Assembly (NCBI RefSeq): GCF_900091585.1
Contig: NZ_FMHT01000003.1
Location: 806,001 to 870,000, forward strand
Reading direction: 5' to 3'
From: Micromonospora nigra
GTDB taxonomy: Bacteria > Actinomycetota > Actinomycetes > Mycobacteriales > Micromonosporaceae
Length of the DNA: 64,000 nt
Shown here: positions 1 through 10,248 of the stretch, in pieces
Numbering within the stretch: the stretch's first letter is position 1
Layout of the letters: each line of letters opens with the position of its first letter
The notes under the pieces: model-generated
The model's database searches: none
What the model saw: only the letters and a program-made list of their open reading frames with translations
Told to the model about the DNA's origin: nothing
Translations under genes and position numbers: made by a program

Positions 1-1476
1 CGGCGGGTCGGCGCGCAGGAGCCACCGGGCGTCCCCGGTGGTCGCAGATCGCCGGCCGGTGCCGTCCGGTTGGGCGGCGGCAACCGCGCCGAGCAGGACC
101 AGCAGCATTTGCAGCTCGTCGAGGGTCAGATCCCGCCACTGCGACAGCCGCTGCCCGGAGCGGGCGAGAATTGCCGATTCGGTGATCGCGGCCTGCGCGG
201 CAGCCCGTGCGGCCCGTTCGCGGGCAGCGCGTTTCGCGCCGGTCCGGTCGGGAATCCGCGCTGCGATCCCGGTCGTTGCTTTCGGGCCCTGCTTGCGCAG
301 GCGGGCCTCCACGGGGACCGGATCGGCATCCCAGAACGACACCGCGCCGGGGTTGCCCGCCGGTGGGTCCCCCGCGCCCGGCAGATGCCGGGCGGAGAAT
401 ATCCCGGTCGAGCTGCACCACAGCCGCCAGGCGGCGTCGTCGTCCGCGGTCGATTCCAGGCGGGTGGCCAGATCGATGAGTTCAGCTCGGCGAGAGACGT
501 GCCCCCCGACGGCGGCCAAGGTCCGCTGCCCGCGCAACAGCGGCCCGATCGTGTCGCGCATCTGTCGGCGTAGTTTGCGGGCCTGGCAGTCCGGTCCGTC
601 GAACCAGCGGCGCAGCGTCTCTAGGGTGAGCAGGTGAGCGTTGACGAGCGCTTCGATCGCTGGCTCGTCCGCGTTCGCGCCGAGGGTGTGCACAGCGATG
701 CGCCGCCACGCCGGTATCGGCAGCAACGCGAGCTTCGCCGCGAGATTGGTGATCGCTTCTGAATGCGTGTCGACGCCGGCGCCCCACATATCAACATAAC
801 GGCGCAGGGTCTCCTGGACCGTGGTGATCTTCTCCAGTGTCGGCGGGCCAGCGAGCGCACCGGCGAGCCGCGCCTGCCACCCTGCGGCGGCCTTCACCAT
901 TGCCTGGTGCGTCGTCGCGATCACGGACCAGGCAGCCGCCGCCCCCGCCGGATCCGCCTCTGCGCTTTCGTACAGCAGGGACAGGTTGGCCATCAGGATC
1001 CCGGGGGCAAGGGTTGCAGCGGCGGCTGCGGCGGTGTCGTCGCCGAGGGACGTGATCGCCCGGTGTAGTTCGGCGACGGTCTCGGTCAGCTGGTACCGGT
1101 CCCGGTCGAGAACGAACTCCGCGTCCCGGACCGCTTTGTCCTGGAACCGGTAGACGACACCCCATCGTTCGAGACGGCCCATCCGATCCTTCAGCTTGAA
1201 CGCCGGGTCGTCGAGGAGCCCCGGATCGACACCCAGCACCTGCAGACGGCGGCGCAGCAGCTCGGGCAGCTCAGTAGCCGCGACCCCGGTCAGGGTGTGC
1301 TCCTGCTCGGCGAGCAGCACATCGACGATCAGCCGGTACTGGGCCGAGAACCGGCTCGTCAGATAGCTGGCCTGCAACAACCCGCCGGGCAGCCCGGCCA
1401 GCTGCCACAGATCCGGGCCGTCAGCCGACCGTTCCTCATCGTCGTCGAGCTCTGCGCCGTCCGGCCGCACACACAT
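1..1476 (-). CDS. jetA: Wadjet JetA-type protein (DUF2397/TIGR02677), 3' end cut by window edge
   Basis: The minus-strand frame is open without a stop from the TAG at 1512-1510 down to base 1, giving 492 codons if it starts at ATG 1476. GTG 1470, which sits better behind a GGGAAGGG Shine-Dalgarno-like run, is an alternative start. N-terminal part: LTSRFSAQYRLIVDVLLAEQ, then a winged-helix-like RLERWGVVYRFQD and RDRYQLTETVAELHR. C-terminal part: VSRRAELIDLATRLE, DDAAWRLW, FSARHLPGAG, VSFWDADPVPVEARLRKQG, IAARIPDRTGAKR and a final LSQWRDLTLDELQMLLVLLG. This series matches my recollection of DUF2397, the JetA (kleisin-like) subunit of Wadjet, an SMC-type complex that restricts circular plasmids. 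Family length is about 500 aa, so only a few C-terminal residues are missing. jetB, jetC and jetD should follow to the left. The family call is from remembered motifs, not a search. Confidence 0.82.
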   Translation of the reverse strand, partial: MCVRPDGAELDDDEERSADGPDLWQLAGLPGGLLQASYLTSRFSAQYRLIVDVLLAEQEHTLTGVAATELPELLRRRLQVLGVDPGLLDDPAFKLKDRMGRLERWGVVYRFQDKAVRDAEFVLDRDRYQLTETVAELHRAITSLGDDTAAAAAATLAPGILMANLSLLYESAEADPAGAAAAWSVIATTHQAMVKAAAGWQARLAGALAGPPTLEKITTVQETLRRYVDMWGAGVDTHSEAITNLAAKLALLPIPAWRRIAVHTLGANADEPAIEALVNAHLLTLETLRRWFDGPDCQARKLRRQMRDTIGPLLRGQRTLAAVGGHVSRRAELIDLATRLESTADDDAAWRLWCSSTGIFSARHLPGAGDPPAGNPGAVSFWDADPVPVEARLRKQGPKATTGIAARIPDRTGAKRAARERAARAAAQAAITESAILARSGQRLSQWRDLTLDELQMLLVLLGAVAAAQPDGTGRRSATTGDARWLLRADPP

Positions 1477-1512
1477 CCCTTCCCACACCACATCGCAGGG
1501 CTCGCGCTCGGG

Positions 1513-1868: not shown

Positions 1869-4800
1869 TCAGTCGATTGCTTGGGTTTCGACGGCCACGG
1901 TGGAGCCGGTGGCTGTCTTACGGACGTAGAGGCGGGATGGAATCCGCCGACGTAGTTCCGCGACGTGGCTGACCAGTCCGACGGTACGGCCACCTGAGCG
2001 CAGGCCGTCGAGGGCGTCGAGTACCTGGTCGAGTGCCTCTTGGTCGAGAGTCCCGAAGCCTTCGTCGACGAAGAGGCTGCCGAGTTGGGTGCCGCCAGCC
2101 TCAGCCAGGACGACATCGCTGAGGCCGAGCGCCAGGCACAGCGAGACCAGAAAGGTTTCCCCGCCGGAGAGGGTGGCCGGGCGGCGTTCCTGGCCGGTCC
2201 AGGCGTCGACGACGGACAAGCCGAGCCCATTGCGGCCGGCGCGGCGGCCGGTGTCCGACTCGGTGACATGGCGCAGCAGGTAGCGGTTGTGGGTGACCTG
2301 CCCGAGTCGGGTGTTCGCCGCCGTGACGACGTGCCGGAACCGGTGGGTCAGCACATAGGTGGAGAGGGTCATCCGGGTACCGCTGTCGCTGCTCTTGCCC
2401 TCGACGAGTTGGGCGAGGCGGTTGGCGATCTCGTACTCAGCGCGGATGGGTCTCCACTGAGCGAGGGCGTTGACCAGATCCGGGCCTAGCTGCTTCAGCC
2501 GGTCGTGTTGCTCGACGGCGAGGCCATGCTGGGCGTGCAGCTCCGTGGCCCGCAGTCGGGCGGCTTGGTAGGTCTGTTCGCTGCCCTCAACGTCCGGTGA
2601 TGGTTGGTGTGCGGCGGCGAGCAGGGTGGGGTCCTGTGCTCGTCCTGCGGCCTGGTGGTACTCGCCGTCGAAAGCGTCGATACGCTTCTGCAGGTCGACG
2701 ATCTCGGGGTCGGTCAGGGCTGCGGCCCGCGCTGCCACGGTGTCGGCGAACTCCGACAGGTGCAGGTGGTGCTGCGCCTCCCTGTGGGCGTCGGCGAGTT
2801 CCCTTCCTGCCTGTAGCCACTGCCCCAGGTTGGTCGCTGCGGTCCTGACCTCGGCGATTTCCCCGGTCAGGCGGGTCACCCGCACCCGCAGGGTCTTGTC
2901 CTGGCCGCGGACGGCGTCGATGGTCTCGTCGAGTTCGGTGATCTGCGCGGTCAGGGCGGCCTGCTGGGCGTTCGCCACCGCTTCGTCGCGGCCGATGTCG
3001 GCGGCTTCGCGGTGCTGATCGGCCAGCATCACGTCGAGGGTTTCCAGGTGGGTGCCGAGTTCGTCGGCCAGTTTCGTCGCCTCGGTCGCCGCCCGCACCG
3101 CCTTGCGTGCCTCGGTGACCGTCGACTTCGCATGGGCTGCGGTCAGGTCACCGACCGTCTCGGTGACTTCGTTGAGCTGGGCGTTGATGCGCTCGACGGT
3201 GATCTCGGCGCTGCGACGTTCGTCGAGCAGTTCGCCCGCCTCCGTCTTGGCGTGGTCCTCGTCGGCGGCGGAGACGGCGTCGGCGGCTGCCTGCGCGGGT
3301 TCGGGGTGTTCCGGGGAGCCACAGACCCCGCAGGGCTGACCGGGCCGCAGTTCACCGGCGAGCTCCGCGGCCATGCCGGCCAGCCGACGCTGCCGTACGT
3401 CGAGGTGCCGGGCCTCGGCGGCTTGGTGGCGGTCGACGGCAGTACGCCGTTCCTCCTCGGCGGTCGCAAGCTGCGCGGTGAGGTCGTCGCGGCGCTTGCA
3501 CGCCTTGGCCTGCTTCTGCGCCTCGTCCAGCCGCAGCTCGGCGGCCTCCCGGTCGGCGGCCACCGCCAGGGCCTGCTCGCGCCGGCCAGTGATTTCGGCA
3601 TGCTCGACCGGCAGCTCGACCAGGCGGGCGTTGACCTTCTCGCTCCGGCTGGCCAGATCTTCGAGCTTCTTGCCGACCGCCGTCCGCTGCCCTCGCAGCG
3701 TGGTCCGTCGCGCCTCGCTGTCGATCGCGGCCTCGGCGGCACGCAGCTGCGTGGTGCGGGTCTGTTCCGCCCGGGTCAGCGCGTCGACGTCGAGGTCGGC
3801 CACGTCGACGGCGTCCCCACCGTCCGGGACAGTCAGCGCAATACGGTCCGGCAGCACCGCCACGTCAGCGGGCAGCGAGGCGAGGTGTTCGATCGTCGTG
3901 CGGCGGAGCAGGTCGAGGTCGGTGTGCCGCCGGTCGACCTGGTCGAGGTACGGCTTCAGCGTCGCTGCCGCGCGGGCGGAGTCGAGCTGGCGCTTCCAGC
4001 GGTCACGCTCCGGCTTGCGTGTCGTCAGCTCATCGCGCTGCTGCACCGCCGCCTGATACTCCCGTTGCTGCCCGGCGAGGGTCGCGGCGGCCTGCCGAAC
4101 CTGGTCGAGGCGCTGCTCCTCCGCCGTACCAACGGCCATGTTCTGGGCCAGGGCCTCCGCCAGGTCAGCGGCCCGGTTTCGGTGCACGGCGGCCCAGGCG
4201 TCCAGCTCACTCAAGGTGTCAGGCTTGTCGAGATCGGCGGGCACCTCGACCTTGACCACCTCGGCGAAGCGCTGCGTCAGGTCGCGGATCGTGCCGAGGG
4301 CCGCGCGTTCCTGCTGGCCGAGTTGCGTCCGGTGCTCCGCCAGCCATCCCTCGGCGCGGGTGAAGATCTCGATGTCGAAGAGGCGCCGCAGGAGCCCCTG
4401 ACGGTCGTCGGCAGACGCCTGCAGGAACCTGGCGAACCCGCCCTGGGGCAGCAGGACCACCTGGCAGAACTGCTGGACGTCAAGGCCGGTCTCCGCCCTG
4501 ATCAGGTCGGCGGCTTCCCGGTGGTCCCTGGTGACGAACTCGGTCCGGTCCGGGAGCTGTTCGACGATCTCGATAAGGGCCTGTTGCCGGGTGGTCCCGC
4601 TGCCGCGTCTACGGGGACGCATCCACTCCGGGCTGCGGCTGATCAACAGCCGTCGGTTGGTCAGGGTGACGTCCAGTTCGACCCGGGGGCCGACACCAAC
4701 GGCGGCATGCTGCGAGTGCAGCGACTTGGCATCGTCCCGGAAACCGGGCACGGACCCGTACAGGGCGAAGCAGATCCCGTCCAGGATCGTGGTCTTCCCC

Positions 4801-4916
4801 GCGCCGGTATCCCCGTGGATCAGGAACAGGCCGTCGGCCGTGAGCGCCTCGAAGTCCACGCTCACCGTGTGAGGAAACGGCCCGAAGGCGGTCATGGTCA
4901 GCCGGTGCAGTCGCAT
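1869..4916 (-). CDS. sbcC: SbcC, SMC-like ATPase of the SbcCD nuclease
   Basis: 1015 aa. SbcC is the ATP-driven subunit of SbcCD (bacterial Mre11-Rad50), which opens hairpins and processes DNA ends. Visible parts: P-loop GDTGAGKTT at residues 35-43 behind an N-terminal MRLHRLTMTAFGPF strand; two long Ala/Glu/Arg-rich coiled-coil arms; a zinc-hook CGVCG near residue 528; the ABC signature LSGGETFLVSLCLALGLS near 915; Walker B LFVDEGFGTLD near 950. Length is normal for the family. The ATG overlaps the TGA of sbcD by one base (TGATG), so translation is probably coupled. Its position beside jetA raises a role in defence, but SbcCD is also a common chromosomal repair complex. It is not JetC: it has a zinc hook and an SbcD partner. 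Confidence 0.95.
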   Translation of the reverse strand: MRLHRLTMTAFGPFPHTVSVDFEALTADGLFLIHGDTGAGKTTILDGICFALYGSVPGFRDDAKSLHSQHAAVGVGPRVELDVTLTNRRLLISRSPEWMRPRRRGSGTTRQQALIEIVEQLPDRTEFVTRDHREAADLIRAETGLDVQQFCQVVLLPQGGFARFLQASADDRQGLLRRLFDIEIFTRAEGWLAEHRTQLGQQERAALGTIRDLTQRFAEVVKVEVPADLDKPDTLSELDAWAAVHRNRAADLAEALAQNMAVGTAEEQRLDQVRQAAATLAGQQREYQAAVQQRDELTTRKPERDRWKRQLDSARAAATLKPYLDQVDRRHTDLDLLRRTTIEHLASLPADVAVLPDRIALTVPDGGDAVDVADLDVDALTRAEQTRTTQLRAAEAAIDSEARRTTLRGQRTAVGKKLEDLASRSEKVNARLVELPVEHAEITGRREQALAVAADREAAELRLDEAQKQAKACKRRDDLTAQLATAEEERRTAVDRHQAAEARHLDVRQRRLAGMAAELAGELRPGQPCGVCGSPEHPEPAQAAADAVSAADEDHAKTEAGELLDERRSAEITVERINAQLNEVTETVGDLTAAHAKSTVTEARKAVRAATEATKLADELGTHLETLDVMLADQHREAADIGRDEAVANAQQAALTAQITELDETIDAVRGQDKTLRVRVTRLTGEIAEVRTAATNLGQWLQAGRELADAHREAQHHLHLSEFADTVAARAAALTDPEIVDLQKRIDAFDGEYHQAAGRAQDPTLLAAAHQPSPDVEGSEQTYQAARLRATELHAQHGLAVEQHDRLKQLGPDLVNALAQWRPIRAEYEIANRLAQLVEGKSSDSGTRMTLSTYVLTHRFRHVVTAANTRLGQVTHNRYLLRHVTESDTGRRAGRNGLGLSVVDAWTGQERRPATLSGGETFLVSLCLALGLSDVVLAEAGGTQLGSLFVDEGFGTLDQEALDQVLDALDGLRSGGRTVGLVSHVAELRRRIPSRLYVRKTATGSTVAVETQAID

Positions 4917-6061
4917 CAGCGGGCCACCTCCACCCGGCGCAGCTCGTCGAAGGTCCGCTGCAGCAGCGCGACCTCGTCGTTGTCCGCCGGCCGACCACGC
5001 ACCTCGGTCACGAAGTCAAGCGCCACCTCCACCGGTGACAGCCGATCCAAATCGGCGAGATCCCGGCCGCCCACCTCGACGGCCAGGCTCGGCACCACGA
5101 GCTTCAGCAGATGTGGGAACCGACGCTTGAGCCGCTCGTGCGGCGACAACGGACGCACCGCATCGGTCAACGTCGCCTCGACCCAACACTGCTCATACGC
5201 GCTGTAGGCAGGGCTGTTCAACAATCCCTCCACGGTGCCGGTGAGCCGGGCCATCCGCCTCGGCACCGGAGCAGGAACCTCCTCCACACCGCGCAGCCCG
5301 TCGACGCCAAAATCCACCAGATAGGACGACTTGACGTGCGCGGCCTCGGAAAAGCTGAACGCCAGCGGTGAACCGCTGTACCGCAACCCGTCGGCCAGAC
5401 GCTGACGCCCGTGCAAGTGACCCAACGCCACATAGTCGACGCCCTCGAACACCGCACCGGGCACATGCTGCACCCCACCCACGCTGATGTCCCGCTCAGT
5501 GTCACAACCCTGACCGCCGGACACGAAGGCGTGCGCCATGACAACGGACCGATAGCCGGGACGAAGGGCCAGATCCGACCGAACCCTACCCATCGCGGCA
5601 CGCAGCGCCGCCGCGTGACTCCGATCCTCGACCCCCCAGGCGGCCACCGCCGACGCCGGTTCGAGGAACGGCACCGGGTAGCAAGCGACCTTCGCGTCCT
5701 CATCCTCCAGCAGCACCGGCGTACCCACCGCACCCGTGCCCACCCGCACGTGCACACCGGCCCGCTCCAGCAACCGGGAACTGACACCCAACCGCGCCGG
5801 CGAATCATGGTTCCCGGCGATGACGACCACCTGGGTTCCCGCCTCCAGCACGAGCCGGGTCTGCGCCTGATCCCACAGACCGACCGCGTCCGGCGGCGGC
5901 ACCGCCCGGTCGTAGAGATCACCCGCGATGAGCACCGCATCGACCCGCTCGCTCCGAGCGCATTCGACGAGGTGGTCGATGAACGCCTGATGCGCGTCGT
6001 GCAGGCTGATGCCGTGCAGATGGCGGCCCAGATGCCAGTCCGAGGTGTGAAGAAAACGCAC
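4916..6061 (-). CDS. sbcD: SbcD, metallo-phosphoesterase nuclease subunit
   Basis: 381 aa from GTG 6061. SbcD is the Mn-dependent nuclease subunit that pairs with SbcC. Motifs in order: FLHTSDWHLGR at the N-terminus, AGDLYDR, AGNHDSP, MAHAFVSGG and ALGHLHGRQ, which together supply the calcineurin-like metal ligands. I chose GTG 6061 because the protein then begins VRFLHTSDWHLGR, the usual SbcD N-terminus. In-frame starts upstream (GTG 6115, ATG 6085) would add a tail that does not look like the family, and none of the three starts has a strong ribosome site. It is first in the sbcD-sbcC operon. Confidence 0.94.
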   Translation of the reverse strand: MRFLHTSDWHLGRHLHGISLHDAHQAFIDHLVECARSERVDAVLIAGDLYDRAVPPPDAVGLWDQAQTRLVLEAGTQVVVIAGNHDSPARLGVSSRLLERAGVHVRVGTGAVGTPVLLEDEDAKVACYPVPFLEPASAVAAWGVEDRSHAAALRAAMGRVRSDLALRPGYRSVVMAHAFVSGGQGCDTERDISVGGVQHVPGAVFEGVDYVALGHLHGRQRLADGLRYSGSPLAFSFSEAAHVKSSYLVDFGVDGLRGVEEVPAPVPRRMARLTGTVEGLLNSPAYSAYEQCWVEATLTDAVRPLSPHERLKRRFPHLLKLVVPSLAVEVGGRDLADLDRLSPVEVALDFVTEVRGRPADNDEVALLQRTFDELRRVEVAR

Positions 6062-6115
6062 GAGCCGAGACGCTAGAACATCCATTGACCGCAGCACATC
6101 ACCCCAGCCGACCAC

Positions 6116-6540: not shown

Positions 6541-8019
6541 ATGCAGTACACGCCGGAACTCGACGGCCCTGACCTGCTCGGCTGGTGGATACGGCAGTCG
6601 CCCCGGCGGGGCCGCCCCCGGACGCGGTACCAGGCAACATCAAAGCCGCTGGGTATCCCATTCGCGTTCTACGGCCGGATGTCGACGCGGGAGTTCCAGG
6701 ACCGGTTGTCGTCGGCGCGGTGGCAACGCGACTTCGCCGAGGACGTGATCGACGGCCGGGGCGTAATCGTCGCCGAGTTCTTCGACGTCGGCGAGTCCCG
6801 TCAGGTGCCCTGGACGCGCCGCCCGCAAGCCGCACGGCTACTGGCAGCTCTCGCGGACCCTGGCCGGGGGTTCGACGCGGTGGTCGTGGGCGAGTTCGAG
6901 CGAGCGTTCTACGGCAACCAGTTCCGCGACCTCGCGCCGCTGTTCAACCTGTACGGCGTGCAGCTGTGGCTGCCCGAACTCAACGGACCGGTCGACGCCA
7001 GCAACGAGTTCCACCTGTCGCTGCTGGCCCTGCTCGGCGTGCACTCGAAACGAGAGGTCCAACGCTCTCGGTTTCGGGCCAAGGCGGCGATGCGCGCCCA
7101 GGTGGTCGAGCAAGGCCGGCATCTCGGTGGCCGACCGCCCTACGGCTACCGGCTGGCCGACGCGGGCCCGCACCCGAACCGGGCACACGCCAAATGGGGA
7201 CGCATGGCCCACCGGCTGGAACCTGACCCGTCCACTGCACCGCATGTGCACTGGATGTTCGCCCAGCGCCTCGCCGGCCGCAGCATCGCCGGAATCGCCC
7301 GCGACCTCAACGATCGGCAGGTGCCCTGCCCGTCCCGCGTCGATCCCGGCCGCAACCCGCACCGCAGCGGCACGGGATGGACGCTACGCACGGTGGCGGC
7401 GATCCTCGCCAACCCTCGCTACACCGGCCGGCAGGTCTGGAACCGGCAGCACACCGACCGCGGCCCACTCGACGCCGCCGATGATCTCCTCGGCCAGTCG
7501 GAGGCACGCCGCTGGAACCTGATGCAGCAATGGGTGATTTCCCGGGACATCGCGCATCCGCCGCTGGTCAGCGAGCACGACTTCGTCGCCGCCCAACAGG
7601 CCAACGCCCTGCTCGCACCGGCCGACGGCGCGAGCGGGCGCTACCTGCTCACCGGGCTGATCCGCTGCCAGGAATGCGGACGGATCCTTGACGCCCACTG
7701 GGTCAATAAGCACGCCGCCTACCGCTGCCGCCACGGCCACCGCACCGCCTCAACAGGTGACGCGCCCCGGCCGCGCAACGTCTACATCCACGAAGCCAAA
7801 GCGATCACACAACTCGCCGAATGGATCGGCATCCCGGCCGCCGACCCCCACACGGTCACCGACGCGCTACTCGAACACGAGCTCCACGTCACCTGCGCGA
7901 TCGGCGGGACACTGACCATCACAAAGATCTCCGACGCGGCCACCGCGCATCGACTACCCGCGATCCCGCACCAGCGCAGGACAGCAGAAACCCCCACCGA
8001 GACGCTCCATCTACCGTGA
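6541..8019 (+). CDS. large serine recombinase / site-specific integrase
   Basis: 492 aa. The N-terminal resolvase domain has FYGRMSTREFQ with the likely nucleophile Ser48, followed by a FDAVVVGEFERAFYG strand-helix segment. A Recombinase domain starts near residue 195 (GRPPYGYRLADAG, TLRTVAAILANPRYTGRQVW). A zinc ribbon near 377-405 (CQECG then CRHGH) completes the usual layout for large serine recombinases. ATG 6541 is supported by GGGAGGTCCTG immediately upstream. The gene ends 22 bp from the 3' end of tRNA-Leu, as integrase genes of tRNA-inserted elements do, though large serine integrases more often target protein genes. It may instead be a resident recombinase. The C-terminal coiled-coil part is short. 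Confidence 0.9.
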   Translation: MQYTPELDGPDLLGWWIRQSPRRGRPRTRYQATSKPLGIPFAFYGRMSTREFQDRLSSARWQRDFAEDVIDGRGVIVAEFFDVGESRQVPWTRRPQAARLLAALADPGRGFDAVVVGEFERAFYGNQFRDLAPLFNLYGVQLWLPELNGPVDASNEFHLSLLALLGVHSKREVQRSRFRAKAAMRAQVVEQGRHLGGRPPYGYRLADAGPHPNRAHAKWGRMAHRLEPDPSTAPHVHWMFAQRLAGRSIAGIARDLNDRQVPCPSRVDPGRNPHRSGTGWTLRTVAAILANPRYTGRQVWNRQHTDRGPLDAADDLLGQSEARRWNLMQQWVISRDIAHPPLVSEHDFVAAQQANALLAPADGASGRYLLTGLIRCQECGRILDAHWVNKHAAYRCRHGHRTASTGDAPRPRNVYIHEAKAITQLAEWIGIPAADPHTVTDALLEHELHVTCAIGGTLTITKISDAATAHRLPAIPHQRRTAETPTETLHLP

Positions 8020-8313: not shown

Positions 8314-10248
8314 GTGCCCCATCCCGCGCCCCTCGCCGCCGTCCAGCACCGCGCTCTCGCCCTGCGGGCTGCCGGTGATCTGACCGCCGCCCGCGAACTG
8401 CTCACCGCGGCCGTGGAGAACGCCCAGCCGCCGTTCGGCACAGATCATCCGGACATGTTGAGCACCGCACACCTGCTGGCCCGGCTGCACCGGGAGGCCG
8501 ACGATCCGATGGCGGCCCGGCGGGTGCTGGAGGAGGCGTTCGCGGCGGGCGAACGCCGCTGGCCGCACGCGGATCCGTTGATGTTGGCCCTCGCCTTCGA
8601 ACTGGGCACGGTCGCCGACGAACTGGGCAACCGGCACGAGGCCCGCCGCAACTACACGCGCGTGGCCACCGCCGGGCCCGCCGTGCTGGGCGTCGAGCAT
8701 CCCGCGGTACGCACGGCGCGGCAGTACCTGGTTGACGCCGCTCCCCCGTTGCCGACCGCCCCCGCTACGCCCGAGCCGCCGACCACGCCACTGCGGCCGG
8801 CCTTCGACGAGCCGACGATGTCGCTGGCCGCCCTGTCGACGGCGTGGCTGCCACACGACGCCTCGACGGCGGCCGACCAGGTCACCGCCGGTTTCCGGAC
8901 GGCTCCCGCCGTGCCCCCGCCCGCCCCGCAGGGCATCGCGCCCACCCCACCGCAGAACACCGGCCCCACCCCACCGCAGCGCGGTCCGCTCACCCCCGCC
9001 GCTGCGCCCGGCCCGCTGCCACCCCCACACGCCACCCCCATGGCACCGCCGGCCACGGCACCGCCGCCCCTGGCACCGCCGCCCGTCGCACCGCCGCCCG
9101 GCATGACGACGCCCGCCACCGCTCCGGAGCCTCCCACCCGTGTGTCACAGGCTCCACCGCCCGCGCCGTACCCCGCCGAGGCGGGCCCGGCACCGGGTTG
9201 GGCCCGGCCGACCATCCAGGTGCAGCAGATCGGCCCCCTGCTCGACGACGAGTTGGCACTCTCCGGGCCGCCCACCACCGCTCTCCCCGCCTCCGGCCCG
9301 GCCACGGCCAATGATGTGGAGCCGCCGTCGGCAAGCTCCGCGGTGTCGACGACCGCGCCGCACCAGCCGGTGTCCGGGCCACCGATCTCTGGGCCACCGA
9401 TCTCCGGGCCACCGGTCAGCGGCCCGTCGGCGCCGCCGCCGCCGTCCAGCCTGCCTGCATCCCCGCCTCCACCACCGGTCGTCGGGCCGCCCGGAGATCC
9501 GTCGCCCGGTCACCCGTCACCCGGCTACCCGTCACCCGGCTATCCGTCGCCCGGAGCGCCGGTGCGCACACCGCCCGGTCCTCCTCCGAAGAGCGCACCA
9601 CCGTCCTACGAGGGCGAGTCGCCGTCCTACGGAAGCGAACCGACGGCGGCACTTTCCTGGCCGCACCCGCACCCGCAGCCGGGCCAGCAGCCGGCAGGTC
9701 CGGCGTACCCGCAGGGCGGCGCGCAGCCGTGGGCCGCCCCCACCTCCCAGTGGGGTGCGCCGCAGCAGGTGTCGGGGGTTCCCGGGCACCCGAACGCGGC
9801 GTACCCGATGTCTGCGCCGCCGGCCCCGGGCGGTGGCCGCAACCGCATCGTGTTGGTCCTCGCGCTGGTGGCGGTGGCTCTCGCGGTCGTGATCGCGGCG
9901 GCGGTGGGCGGGATGATGCTCAGCCGGAGTTCAGCTGCGCCAGCGGACCCGGGGGCGTCGGCGTCGCCGGCGCGGACCGGGCCGCCGCCGACGGACCTGC
10001 GGCTGCGGGACGAGTCGTCCACGATCACGTTGACGTGGAGCGACCCGTCGGGCGGGGCGGTGCCGCACATGGTGGCCGGGGGCCGGGCCGGGCAGGCTCT
10101 CGGAGTGCTGGCCACCGTGGATCCGGGGCGTACCAGTTACACGGTCAACGGGCTGAACTCGCGGGTGGACTACTGCTTCACGGTGCTCGCGGTGCACTCC
10201 ACGGACAGCTTCGCGACGTCCAGTCAGGTGTGTACCACCCGACAGTGA
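8314..10248 (+). CDS. TPR-like, proline-rich, single-TM protein with C-terminal FnIII domain
   Basis: 644 aa. Residues 1-140 are alpha-helical and TPR-like (HRALALRAAGDLTAARELL, ARRVLEEAF, GNRHEARRNYTRVA), as in cytosolic tetratricopeptide modules. Residues about 150-505 are low-complexity and Pro-rich, with short repeats (SGPPISGPP; SPGYPSPGYPSPG). A transmembrane helix at about 510-533 (IVLVLALVAVALAVVIAAAV) is followed by one FnIII-like domain (LRLRDESSTITLTWSDPSGG ... YCFTVLAV). The layout predicts a cytosolic scaffold with an extracellular FnIII domain. GTG 8314 is the first start in frame; no strong ribosome site marks it. It probably belongs with the next FnIII gene. Function unknown. 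Confidence 0.8.
   Translation: MPHPAPLAAVQHRALALRAAGDLTAARELLTAAVENAQPPFGTDHPDMLSTAHLLARLHREADDPMAARRVLEEAFAAGERRWPHADPLMLALAFELGTVADELGNRHEARRNYTRVATAGPAVLGVEHPAVRTARQYLVDAAPPLPTAPATPEPPTTPLRPAFDEPTMSLAALSTAWLPHDASTAADQVTAGFRTAPAVPPPAPQGIAPTPPQNTGPTPPQRGPLTPAAAPGPLPPPHATPMAPPATAPPPLAPPPVAPPPGMTTPATAPEPPTRVSQAPPPAPYPAEAGPAPGWARPTIQVQQIGPLLDDELALSGPPTTALPASGPATANDVEPPSASSAVSTTAPHQPVSGPPISGPPISGPPVSGPSAPPPPSSLPASPPPPPVVGPPGDPSPGHPSPGYPSPGYPSPGAPVRTPPGPPPKSAPPSYEGESPSYGSEPTAALSWPHPHPQPGQQPAGPAYPQGGAQPWAAPTSQWGAPQQVSGVPGHPNAAYPMSAPPAPGGGRNRIVLVLALVAVALAVVIAAAVGGMMLSRSSAAPADPGASASPARTGPPPTDLRLRDESSTITLTWSDPSGGAVPHMVAGGRAGQALGVLATVDPGRTSYTVNGLNSRVDYCFTVLAVHSTDSFATSSQVCTTRQ

What the first reader, a model, noticed from the sequence alone, without database searches (positions are those of the whole stretch)
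1..1476. Edge of a Wadjet (JetABCD) plasmid-defence operon
The minus-strand frame at the left edge is open for 492 codons and carries the full set of DUF2397 motifs I know. It is the JetA subunit of an SMC-like Wadjet system, reading out of the window. The N-terminal half (Gln/Leu-rich, LTSRFSAQYRLIVDVLLAEQ) looks divergent from common JetA proteins, so this may be an unusual branch.
Basis: partly seen in the sequence, partly recalled or inferred. Interest (0 to 1): 0.72.

Follow-up and report, generated by a model that had tools for sequence, protein, structure and literature searches.

The report
Wadjet plasmid-cutter beside extra SbcCD nuclease
The edge gene belongs to a complete four-gene Wadjet system, a machine that finds and cuts small circular plasmids, and it sits beside a spare DNA-end nuclease, a pairing that recurs in related bacteria and may show how cut plasmids are then destroyed.

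Summary
Confirmed. The edge frame is jetA (DUF2397). Extending the contig left shows a complete jetABCD operon with 4-base gene overlaps and catalytic motifs present: a type II Wadjet system. A 'divergent N-terminal half' is not supported: both halves are equally conserved.

Just upstream, sbcD-sbcC (1869-6115, same strand) is a second, accessory Mre11-Rad50 copy. In the 112 order genomes with DUF2397, 4 of 146 DUF2397 places have an SbcD within 10 kb (about 0.4 expected), from at least three SbcCD types. Eight of 146 have X2 nearby (about 0.1 expected), part of an unannotated module: a 4-Cys PD-(D/E)XK-like nuclease (X1), an RNaseH-fold/barrel protein (X2) and an SF1 helicase (X3), resembling a DNA2-type enzyme split into genes. 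One locus joins this module to a type I Wadjet; in three loci it stands before jetABC with no jetD found.

I propose a partnership: Wadjet handles circular plasmids, accessory nucleases destroy the DNA. Most Wadjet II operons lack these neighbours. In the window only SbcCD is adjacent, and that SbcCD also occurs without Wadjet, so coupling here is inferred, not shown.

The parts
1..1491 (-). jetA (kleisin subunit, DUF2397), 5' 497 codons of 529; continues out of the window to contig C3:805902. It is followed outside the window by jetB (C3:804739-805905, 388 aa, DUF2398), jetC (C3:800375-804742, 1455 aa, SMC ATPase) and jetD (C3:799173-800378, 401 aa, DUF3323+DUF2399 TOPRIM), all minus strand
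   Evidence: 4-base overlaps GTGA, ATGA, ATGA follow from the coordinates and start codons
1652..1774 (.). junction between two blocks of different history: the jetABCD block ends near 1652 (shared with Micromonospora CB01531) or 1532 (shared with G060); the sbcCD+recombinase block begins near 1774 (shared with G225)
   Evidence: blastn block ends, (query coordinate minus 16000 = window coordinate)
1869..4916 (-). accessory sbcC (Rad50-like ATPase, 1015 aa), Walker A, CxxC zinc hook, LSGGE signature and Walker B present
4916..6115 (-). accessory sbcD (Mre11-like phosphoesterase, 399 aa), DxH, GDxxD, GNHD and GHxH motifs present; one of two SbcD matches in this genome (the other is at C3:4797639-4798391)
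6541..8019 (+). large serine recombinase (PF07508 Recombinase + PF13408 zinc ribbon), divergent from sbcD; lies beside this sbcCD in G225 too

Best explanation
This is the start of a complete and apparently intact type II Wadjet operon, jetABCD. By the mechanism established for Wadjet, JetA (kleisin), JetB (KITE) and JetC (SMC ATPase) form a motor dimer that loads on DNA and extrudes a loop. On a small circular molecule the two motors meet after complete extrusion, and JetD, a TOPRIM nuclease, cuts the circle; linear and very large DNA is spared. Shown here: all four genes, their order, overlaps, family membership and catalytic motifs. Inferred from family knowledge: loop extrusion, plasmid cutting and size selection in this organism. 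Further inferred, with lower confidence (about 0.35): the accessory SbcCD beside it helps destroy the linearised plasmid.
For: Four genes in order A-B-C-D within 8.3 kb, each overlapping the next by 4 bases. Pfam: DUF2397, DUF2398, SbcC_Walker_B, DUF3323+DUF2399. The best PADLOC models are JetA2/B2/C2/D2 (2e-241, 3e-183, 1e-187, 2e-60). A JetA family profile matches the solved JetA of 9qe0 over nearly its whole length (E 2e-15) and JetC matches JetC of the same entry (1.8e-34). I identify 9qe0 with the type II Neobacillus vireti complex that PMC12647877 cites; the entry number was not in the passages I saw. That paper says this Wadjet-II cleaves naked circular DNA (passages). JetC has Walker A GQNQSGKST, SGG and Walker B WLDEAFEG; JetD keeps the glutamate of CENP and DxD, invariant in the 24 aligned sequences. 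The operon is an accessory trait: 11 of 101 genomes (own genome counted, several at 27-42% identity) have a JetA match.
Against: All four score below the NCBIfam equivalog cut-offs. JetD's match to DUF2399 stops at profile position 102 of 152. The 18 homologues of 43% identity or more share this short end; of the five at 38-42%, four carry an insert there, so it looks like a clade trait rather than decay. No expression or activity data. Plasmid defence by this operon is untested.
Confidence: 0.9

Rival explanations
1. Partnership of Wadjet with its own DNA-end enzymes: accessory Mre11-Rad50 (SbcCD), and in relatives a three-gene DNA2-like nuclease/helicase module, act after or with Wadjet. JetD opens the circle, SbcCD recognises the ends, and the nuclease/helicase strips the linear DNA before it can be rejoined or replicate. 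SbcCD could also attack linear replicons that Wadjet spares, and where jetD is missing the module might do the cutting itself.
For: Window sbcCD is one of two copies. SbcD within 10 kb of DUF2397 at 4 of 146 places against about 0.43 expected, gaps 3.9-5.2 kb, plus G607 in the phylum sample. The SbcDs belong to at least three types: window, CB01531 (35% to the window's) and G074/G356/G607 (40-65% to each other, 29-35% to the other two), so the pairing arose more than once. X2 lies within 10 kb at 8 of 146 places against about 0.09. X1-X2-X3 run straight into jetA-jetC on one strand in L117, L124, L125, and X0-X1-X2-X3 into jetD-jetA-jetC in L118. In L117, L124, L125 no jetD was found in the 19.9 kb read, by profile or tblastn, while L026, L099, L101, L111, L118, L119 have one. 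The module also sits beside a complete type I Wadjet (L120: JetA1/B1/C1/D1).
Against: At 142 of 146 DUF2397 places no SbcD, and at 138 of 146 no X2, was found within 10 kb (some lie near contig ends). The window's own sbcCD type occurs without jet genes nearby in G225 (98-99% identical, with the recombinase, on a 9.3-kb contig) and G408. X1-X2-X3-SbcD-SbcC arrays without jet genes exist (L121, L126). 59 of 67 X2 places have no DUF2397 within 10 kb. The window locus has no X1-X3 nearby. No biochemical evidence.
Confidence: 0.35
2. Defence-island neighbourhood: the accessory SbcCD with its recombinase and the Wadjet operon are separately mobile cargo that landed side by side, with no joint function.
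For: The two blocks have a sharp junction between about 1652 and 1774 and different homologous partners. A third defence-like operon lies on the other side of jetD. sbcCD with the same recombinase exists elsewhere without jet genes.
Against: Does not explain why several unrelated SbcCDs end up next to Wadjet, or the X1-X2-X3-jet arrays. A restriction-enzyme control (HsdR N-domain, 71 places in 80 of the 112 genomes) shows 0 neighbours within 10 kb of SbcD, X2 or DUF2397, but only 0.06-0.27 were expected, so the control has little power.
Confidence: 0.55
3. A chromosome-organising MksBEF-like condensin rather than a plasmid defence system.
For: JetABC resemble MukBEF/MksBEF (review PMC10586767, passages).
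Against: A TOPRIM jetD is present with its catalytic residues, and the operon is patchy among relatives, unlike a housekeeping condensin.
Confidence: 0.04

Closest known systems
Wadjet type II (JetABCD; TIGR02677-TIGR02680; DUF2397/2398/2399), e.g. Neobacillus vireti nvJET
   Same: All four subunits, gene order, SMC and TOPRIM motifs; near full-length profile match of JetA to the solved JetA 9qe0
   Different: Branch below the NCBIfam cut-offs; JetD with a shorter C-terminus; an accessory SbcCD directly upstream
Wadjet type I (JetA DUF3375, JetB DUF4194, JetD DUF3322/JetD_C)
   Same: Same overall machine; in G424 a type I operon has the same accessory module beside it
   Different: The window operon belongs to the DUF2397/2398/2399 type, not this one
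Bacterial Mre11-Rad50 (SbcCD)
   Same: Window SbcD matches TIGR00619 over its cut-off; both proteins carry the expected motifs, SbcC a CxxC hook
   Different: One of two copies, beside a serine recombinase and next to Wadjet, not the copy at C3:4797639
DNA2 and TM0106-type nuclease-helicases (recalled as comparison for the X1-X2-X3 module in relatives)
   Different: Three separate genes; no NCBIfam or Pfam match for the X1 and X2 proteins scanned; activity unknown; the TM0106 comparison is from memory

Membership tests
Wadjet type II | JetA with DUF2397 | tested here: met
   345.9 bits, profile 2-482 of 483; PADLOC JetA2 2e-241
Wadjet type II | JetB with DUF2398 adjacent | tested here: met
   258.6 bits, cut-off 26.9
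Wadjet type II | SMC-like JetC with ABC ATPase motifs | tested here: met
   JetC2 1e-187; TIGR02680 1.2e-128, below its cut-off; Walker A/B and SGG
Wadjet type II | JetD with TOPRIM catalytic residues | tested here: met
   DUF3323 and DUF2399 over cut-off; glutamate of CENP and DxD invariant in 24 sequences; a JetD profile matches small TOPRIM proteins weakly (E 0.0085)
Wadjet type II | Scores above the NCBIfam curated cut-offs TIGR02677-02680 | tested here: not met
   All four match but below cut-off; I take these models to define narrower groups than type II itself, since PADLOC's type II models and the 9qe0 match hold
Wadjet type II | Restricts small circular plasmids | not testable with these tools
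   Needs a transformation assay
SbcCD (Mre11-Rad50) | SbcD phosphoesterase and SbcC ATPase with zinc hook, adjacent | tested here: met
   TIGR00619 159.8-161.4 bits, cut-off 77.65; motifs. SbcC matches TIGR00618 at 7e-79 but below its cut-off
CoCoNuT (McrBC-like) for the neighbouring operon at C3:790234-798750 | UPF1-like SF1 helicase, winged-helix protein, coiled-coil McrB and DUF2357 McrC in one operon | tested here: inconclusive
   AAA_11/AAA_12 helicase, AAA_5 and DUF2357 matches, wHTH match below cut-off; the arrangement agrees with PMC11090510 (passages); coiled coil judged by eye; no tree or domain modelling was done
DNA2-like nuclease/helicase for the X1-X2-X3 module | Fe-S PD-(D/E)XK nuclease, barrel/stalk, SF1 helicase | tested here: inconclusive
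   Motifs and fold matches agree, but no sequence-family match for X1 or X2 and no structure of X1 was made

The most novel reading that the evidence does not exclude
Wadjet systems of types I and II in Actinomycetota are repeatedly built into a larger plasmid-destruction locus. An accessory Mre11-Rad50 (SbcCD) and/or a three-to-four-gene module that I found described nowhere (X0, Fe-S nuclease X1, RNaseH-fold/barrel X2, SF1 helicase X3), which amounts to a DNA2-type resection enzyme split into separate genes, takes over the ends made by JetD and in some loci may replace JetD. The window carries the Wadjet + SbcCD form.
Probability: 0.35. Interest if true: 0.75.

Novelty: new variant of a known kind. 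Interest (0 to 1): 0.5.

Why it matters
As far as I recall, what finally destroys a plasmid after Wadjet opens the circle is left to general host nucleases. A recurrent, separately acquired pairing of Wadjet with end-processing enzymes would make that step testable. It would also suggest how hosts deal with linear DNA, which Wadjet alone spares. The jetABCD operon by itself is ordinary: Wadjet is reported in 42% of actinobacterial genomes (PMC10482375, passages). 'New variant' refers to the arrangement, not to jetABCD.

Tried and rejected
Unusual JetA branch: rejected by the alignment of 27 JetA sequences. JetD truncated by a mutation: rejected, since homologues of 43% identity or more share the short end. 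The upstream sbcCD being the only or housekeeping copy: rejected, a second SbcD lies at C3:4797639 and the two are 34% identical. X1-X3 beside the window operon: none of the X proteins matched the window or L002 in tblastn. The own genome has an X2 at C3:4197254 with X1 before it and no X3, SbcCD or jet gene labelled in the 18 kb read. X1 against solved structures: only weak matches, the best to designed repeat proteins through short repeated stretches, which I take as chance. X2 by sequence against solved structures: nothing. Foldseek alone gave no match at E of 0.001 or better for X2 or its N-terminal part; the fold statements rest on the second-look aligner, where middling Z can be chance.

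Counts: I used 146 DUF2397 places, leaving out matches below cut-off and counting two split genes (G057:C74, G091:C1) once each; one search says that more matches are not listed. 113 over-cut-off SbcD places come (57 + 55 = the 112 genomes over the DUF2397 cut-off); SbcD matches below cut-off were dropped. 67 X2 places come (397 genomes), one gene listed in two pieces (G384) counted once; G349's X2 has one stop inside. 71 HsdR places come (80 of the 112 genomes; one place below cut-off dropped). Expected numbers assume 7-Mb genomes and no phylogenetic correction; several neighbours are in the same genus. In the first tblastn my jetB query was one base out of frame; I corrected it and draw nothing from the jetB rows. 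My gene caller is crude: jetB is labelled in only some of the fetched loci, and X2 of L117, L118 and L119 is placed.

Literature: searched open-licence PMC only. Four papers name both Wadjet and SbcCD; in the passages I saw of each the pairing is not reported. Two more with Wadjet and co-occurrence were looked at in passages. The statement that the pairing and the module seem undescribed rests on these searches and on the PADLOC, Pfam and NCBIfam scans.

Full report
What is at the edge. The window lies at contig C3:806001-870000 of a 6.36-Mb genome. A Verrucosispora sioxanthis contig carries the same region at 98.5% over 18.1 kb, and the nearest named protein relatives are Micromonospora. The minus-strand frame at 1-1491 is the 5' part of a DUF2397 gene. 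I fetched 16 kb to its left (L002). The full operon is jetA 529 aa, jetB 388 aa, jetC 1455 aa and jetD 401 aa, each overlapping the next by four bases. Pfam, PADLOC and NCBIfam agree on DUF2397, DUF2398, an SMC-like ATPase and DUF3323+DUF2399. PADLOC's models carry the type II label; a JetA profile matches the JetA chain of 9qe0 almost from end to end (positions 26-510 to 12-492 of 500). I take 9qe0 to be the type II complex of Neobacillus vireti; the entry number was not in the passages read. PMC12647877 (passages) cites that structure and says this Wadjet-II cleaves naked circular DNA.

Is it intact and unusual? Motifs for ATP binding and hydrolysis in JetC and for metal binding in JetD are present, and the JetD residues are invariant in the 24 sequences aligned. 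JetA's two halves are equally conserved, so the suggestion of a divergent N-terminal half fails. The four proteins do fall below NCBI's curated cut-offs, but PADLOC already covers this branch.

How it works. From the published Wadjet work (review PMC10586767, passages): JetABC is thought to extrude DNA loops, and when a small circle has been extruded completely the motors meet and JetD cuts; linear DNA and circles above roughly 50-100 kb escape. Applying this here is inference.

The neighbour. The genes directly upstream on the same strand are sbcD and sbcC (4916-6115 and 1869-4916). The genome has another SbcD at C3:4797639, 34% identical, so I call the window pair accessory. Nucleotide blocks show two histories meeting between about 1652 and 1774: the jet block is shared at 96.6% with Micromonospora CB01531 and 86.0% with G060, while the sbcCD + serine-recombinase block is shared at 98.2% with G225, which has no jet match on that 9.3-kb contig. 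G408 also has this sbcCD type without a jet match within the 19.9 kb read.

The pairing recurs. In CB01531 the near-identical jet operon (its jetA is interrupted) has a different accessory SbcCD at the same place, SbcD 35% identical to the window's; that genome's other SbcD is elsewhere. In the order sample 112 of 397 genomes have DUF2397 over cut-off. SbcD lies within 10 kb of DUF2397 at 4 of 146 places (G000, G057, G074, G356) against about 0.43 expected. In the phylum sample 33 of 396 genomes have DUF2397 over cut-off; SbcD was searched in the 29 of these not already searched, and one more case appears, G607. The SbcDs fall into at least three types.

Where the module sits. X2 occurs in 61 of 397 order genomes and lies within 10 kb of DUF2397 at 8 of 146 places, about 0.09 expected. 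X1-X2-X3 run straight into jetA and jetC on one strand in L117, L124 and L125, three genomes of one genus. There no jetD was found in the 19.9 kb read, although the same searches found jetD in L026, L099, L101, L111, L118 and L119; so the module may stand in for JetD in that genus, or jetD lies elsewhere. In L118 the order is X0-X1-X2-X3-jetD-jetA-jetC; in L119 it is the same with two more genes between X3 and jetD. In L120 the module is followed by a complete type I Wadjet and preceded by SbcC- and SbcD-like matches below the SbcD cut-off. In L121 and L126 the module and SbcD-SbcC occur without jet genes. In the phylum sample 15 of 396 genomes have an X2 match, and of its places only G607:C18 is beside DUF2397.

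Reading. The data support a real but minority association of Wadjet with DNA-end enzymes. I think the most interesting reading is a locus that cuts and then degrades plasmids. Evidence against is substantial: most Wadjet II places have none of these neighbours, most X2 genes have no DUF2397 nearby, and the window's own SbcCD is a separately mobile block. Published work makes the step plausible: SbcCD cleaves near protein-blocked ends and hairpins (PMC6265447, abstract in the listing), and Mre11-Rad50 has been described as acting as phage defence against hairpin-ended DNA (PMC12624138, passages).

Verdict. The window operon is a standard type II Wadjet, confidence 0.9.

Noticed in passing
L002:234-8750 (contig C3:790234-798750), plus strand, convergent with jetD: Four-gene operon: SF1 helicase (AAA_11/AAA_12, long insert after Walker A), a 572-aa protein with weak winged-helix and MkoB matches, a coiled-coil-looking McrB-like AAA protein (DEMN motif) and a DUF2357 McrC-like protein with zinc-ribbon-like cysteines; resembles CoCoNuT systems as described in PMC11090510. 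The two genes reached in V. sioxanthis L021 are 99% identical.
   Followed up: partly
G000 contig C3:4196160-4198732 (L116:7160-9732): The window's own genome has an X1-X2 pair without X3, SbcCD or jet genes labelled nearby; X2 matches are found in 44 of the 62 same-genus genomes listed. Its function is unknown.
   Followed up: partly
L120 (G424:C15): Type I Wadjet (DUF3375, DUF4194, JetC1, JetD_C) directly after X0-X1-X2-X3, with SbcC- and SbcD-like matches on the other side.
   Followed up: partly
L117, L124, L125 (G382, G401, G280): jetABC-type genes directly after X1-X2-X3 with no jetD found in the 19.9 kb read.
   Followed up: partly
L058:4275-10651 and L122:8243-14643: A GmrSD-type (PF03235) restriction gene, 94% identical between the two loci, sits between X2 and X3.
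   Followed up: no
L111:11109-12587 (G607): An IrrE/M78-type gene (PF06114) lies between jetA and sbcC.
   Followed up: no
L102 (G225:C230) 141-1628 and 8784-9305: The sbcCD block in G225 carries a serine recombinase gene beside sbcD and a second recombinase fragment cut off by the contig end, suggesting a mobile unit.
   Followed up: no
window:10404-13022: Large secreted-looking protein with repeated fibronectin-type segments, unrelated to the finding (recognised by eye only).
   Followed up: no
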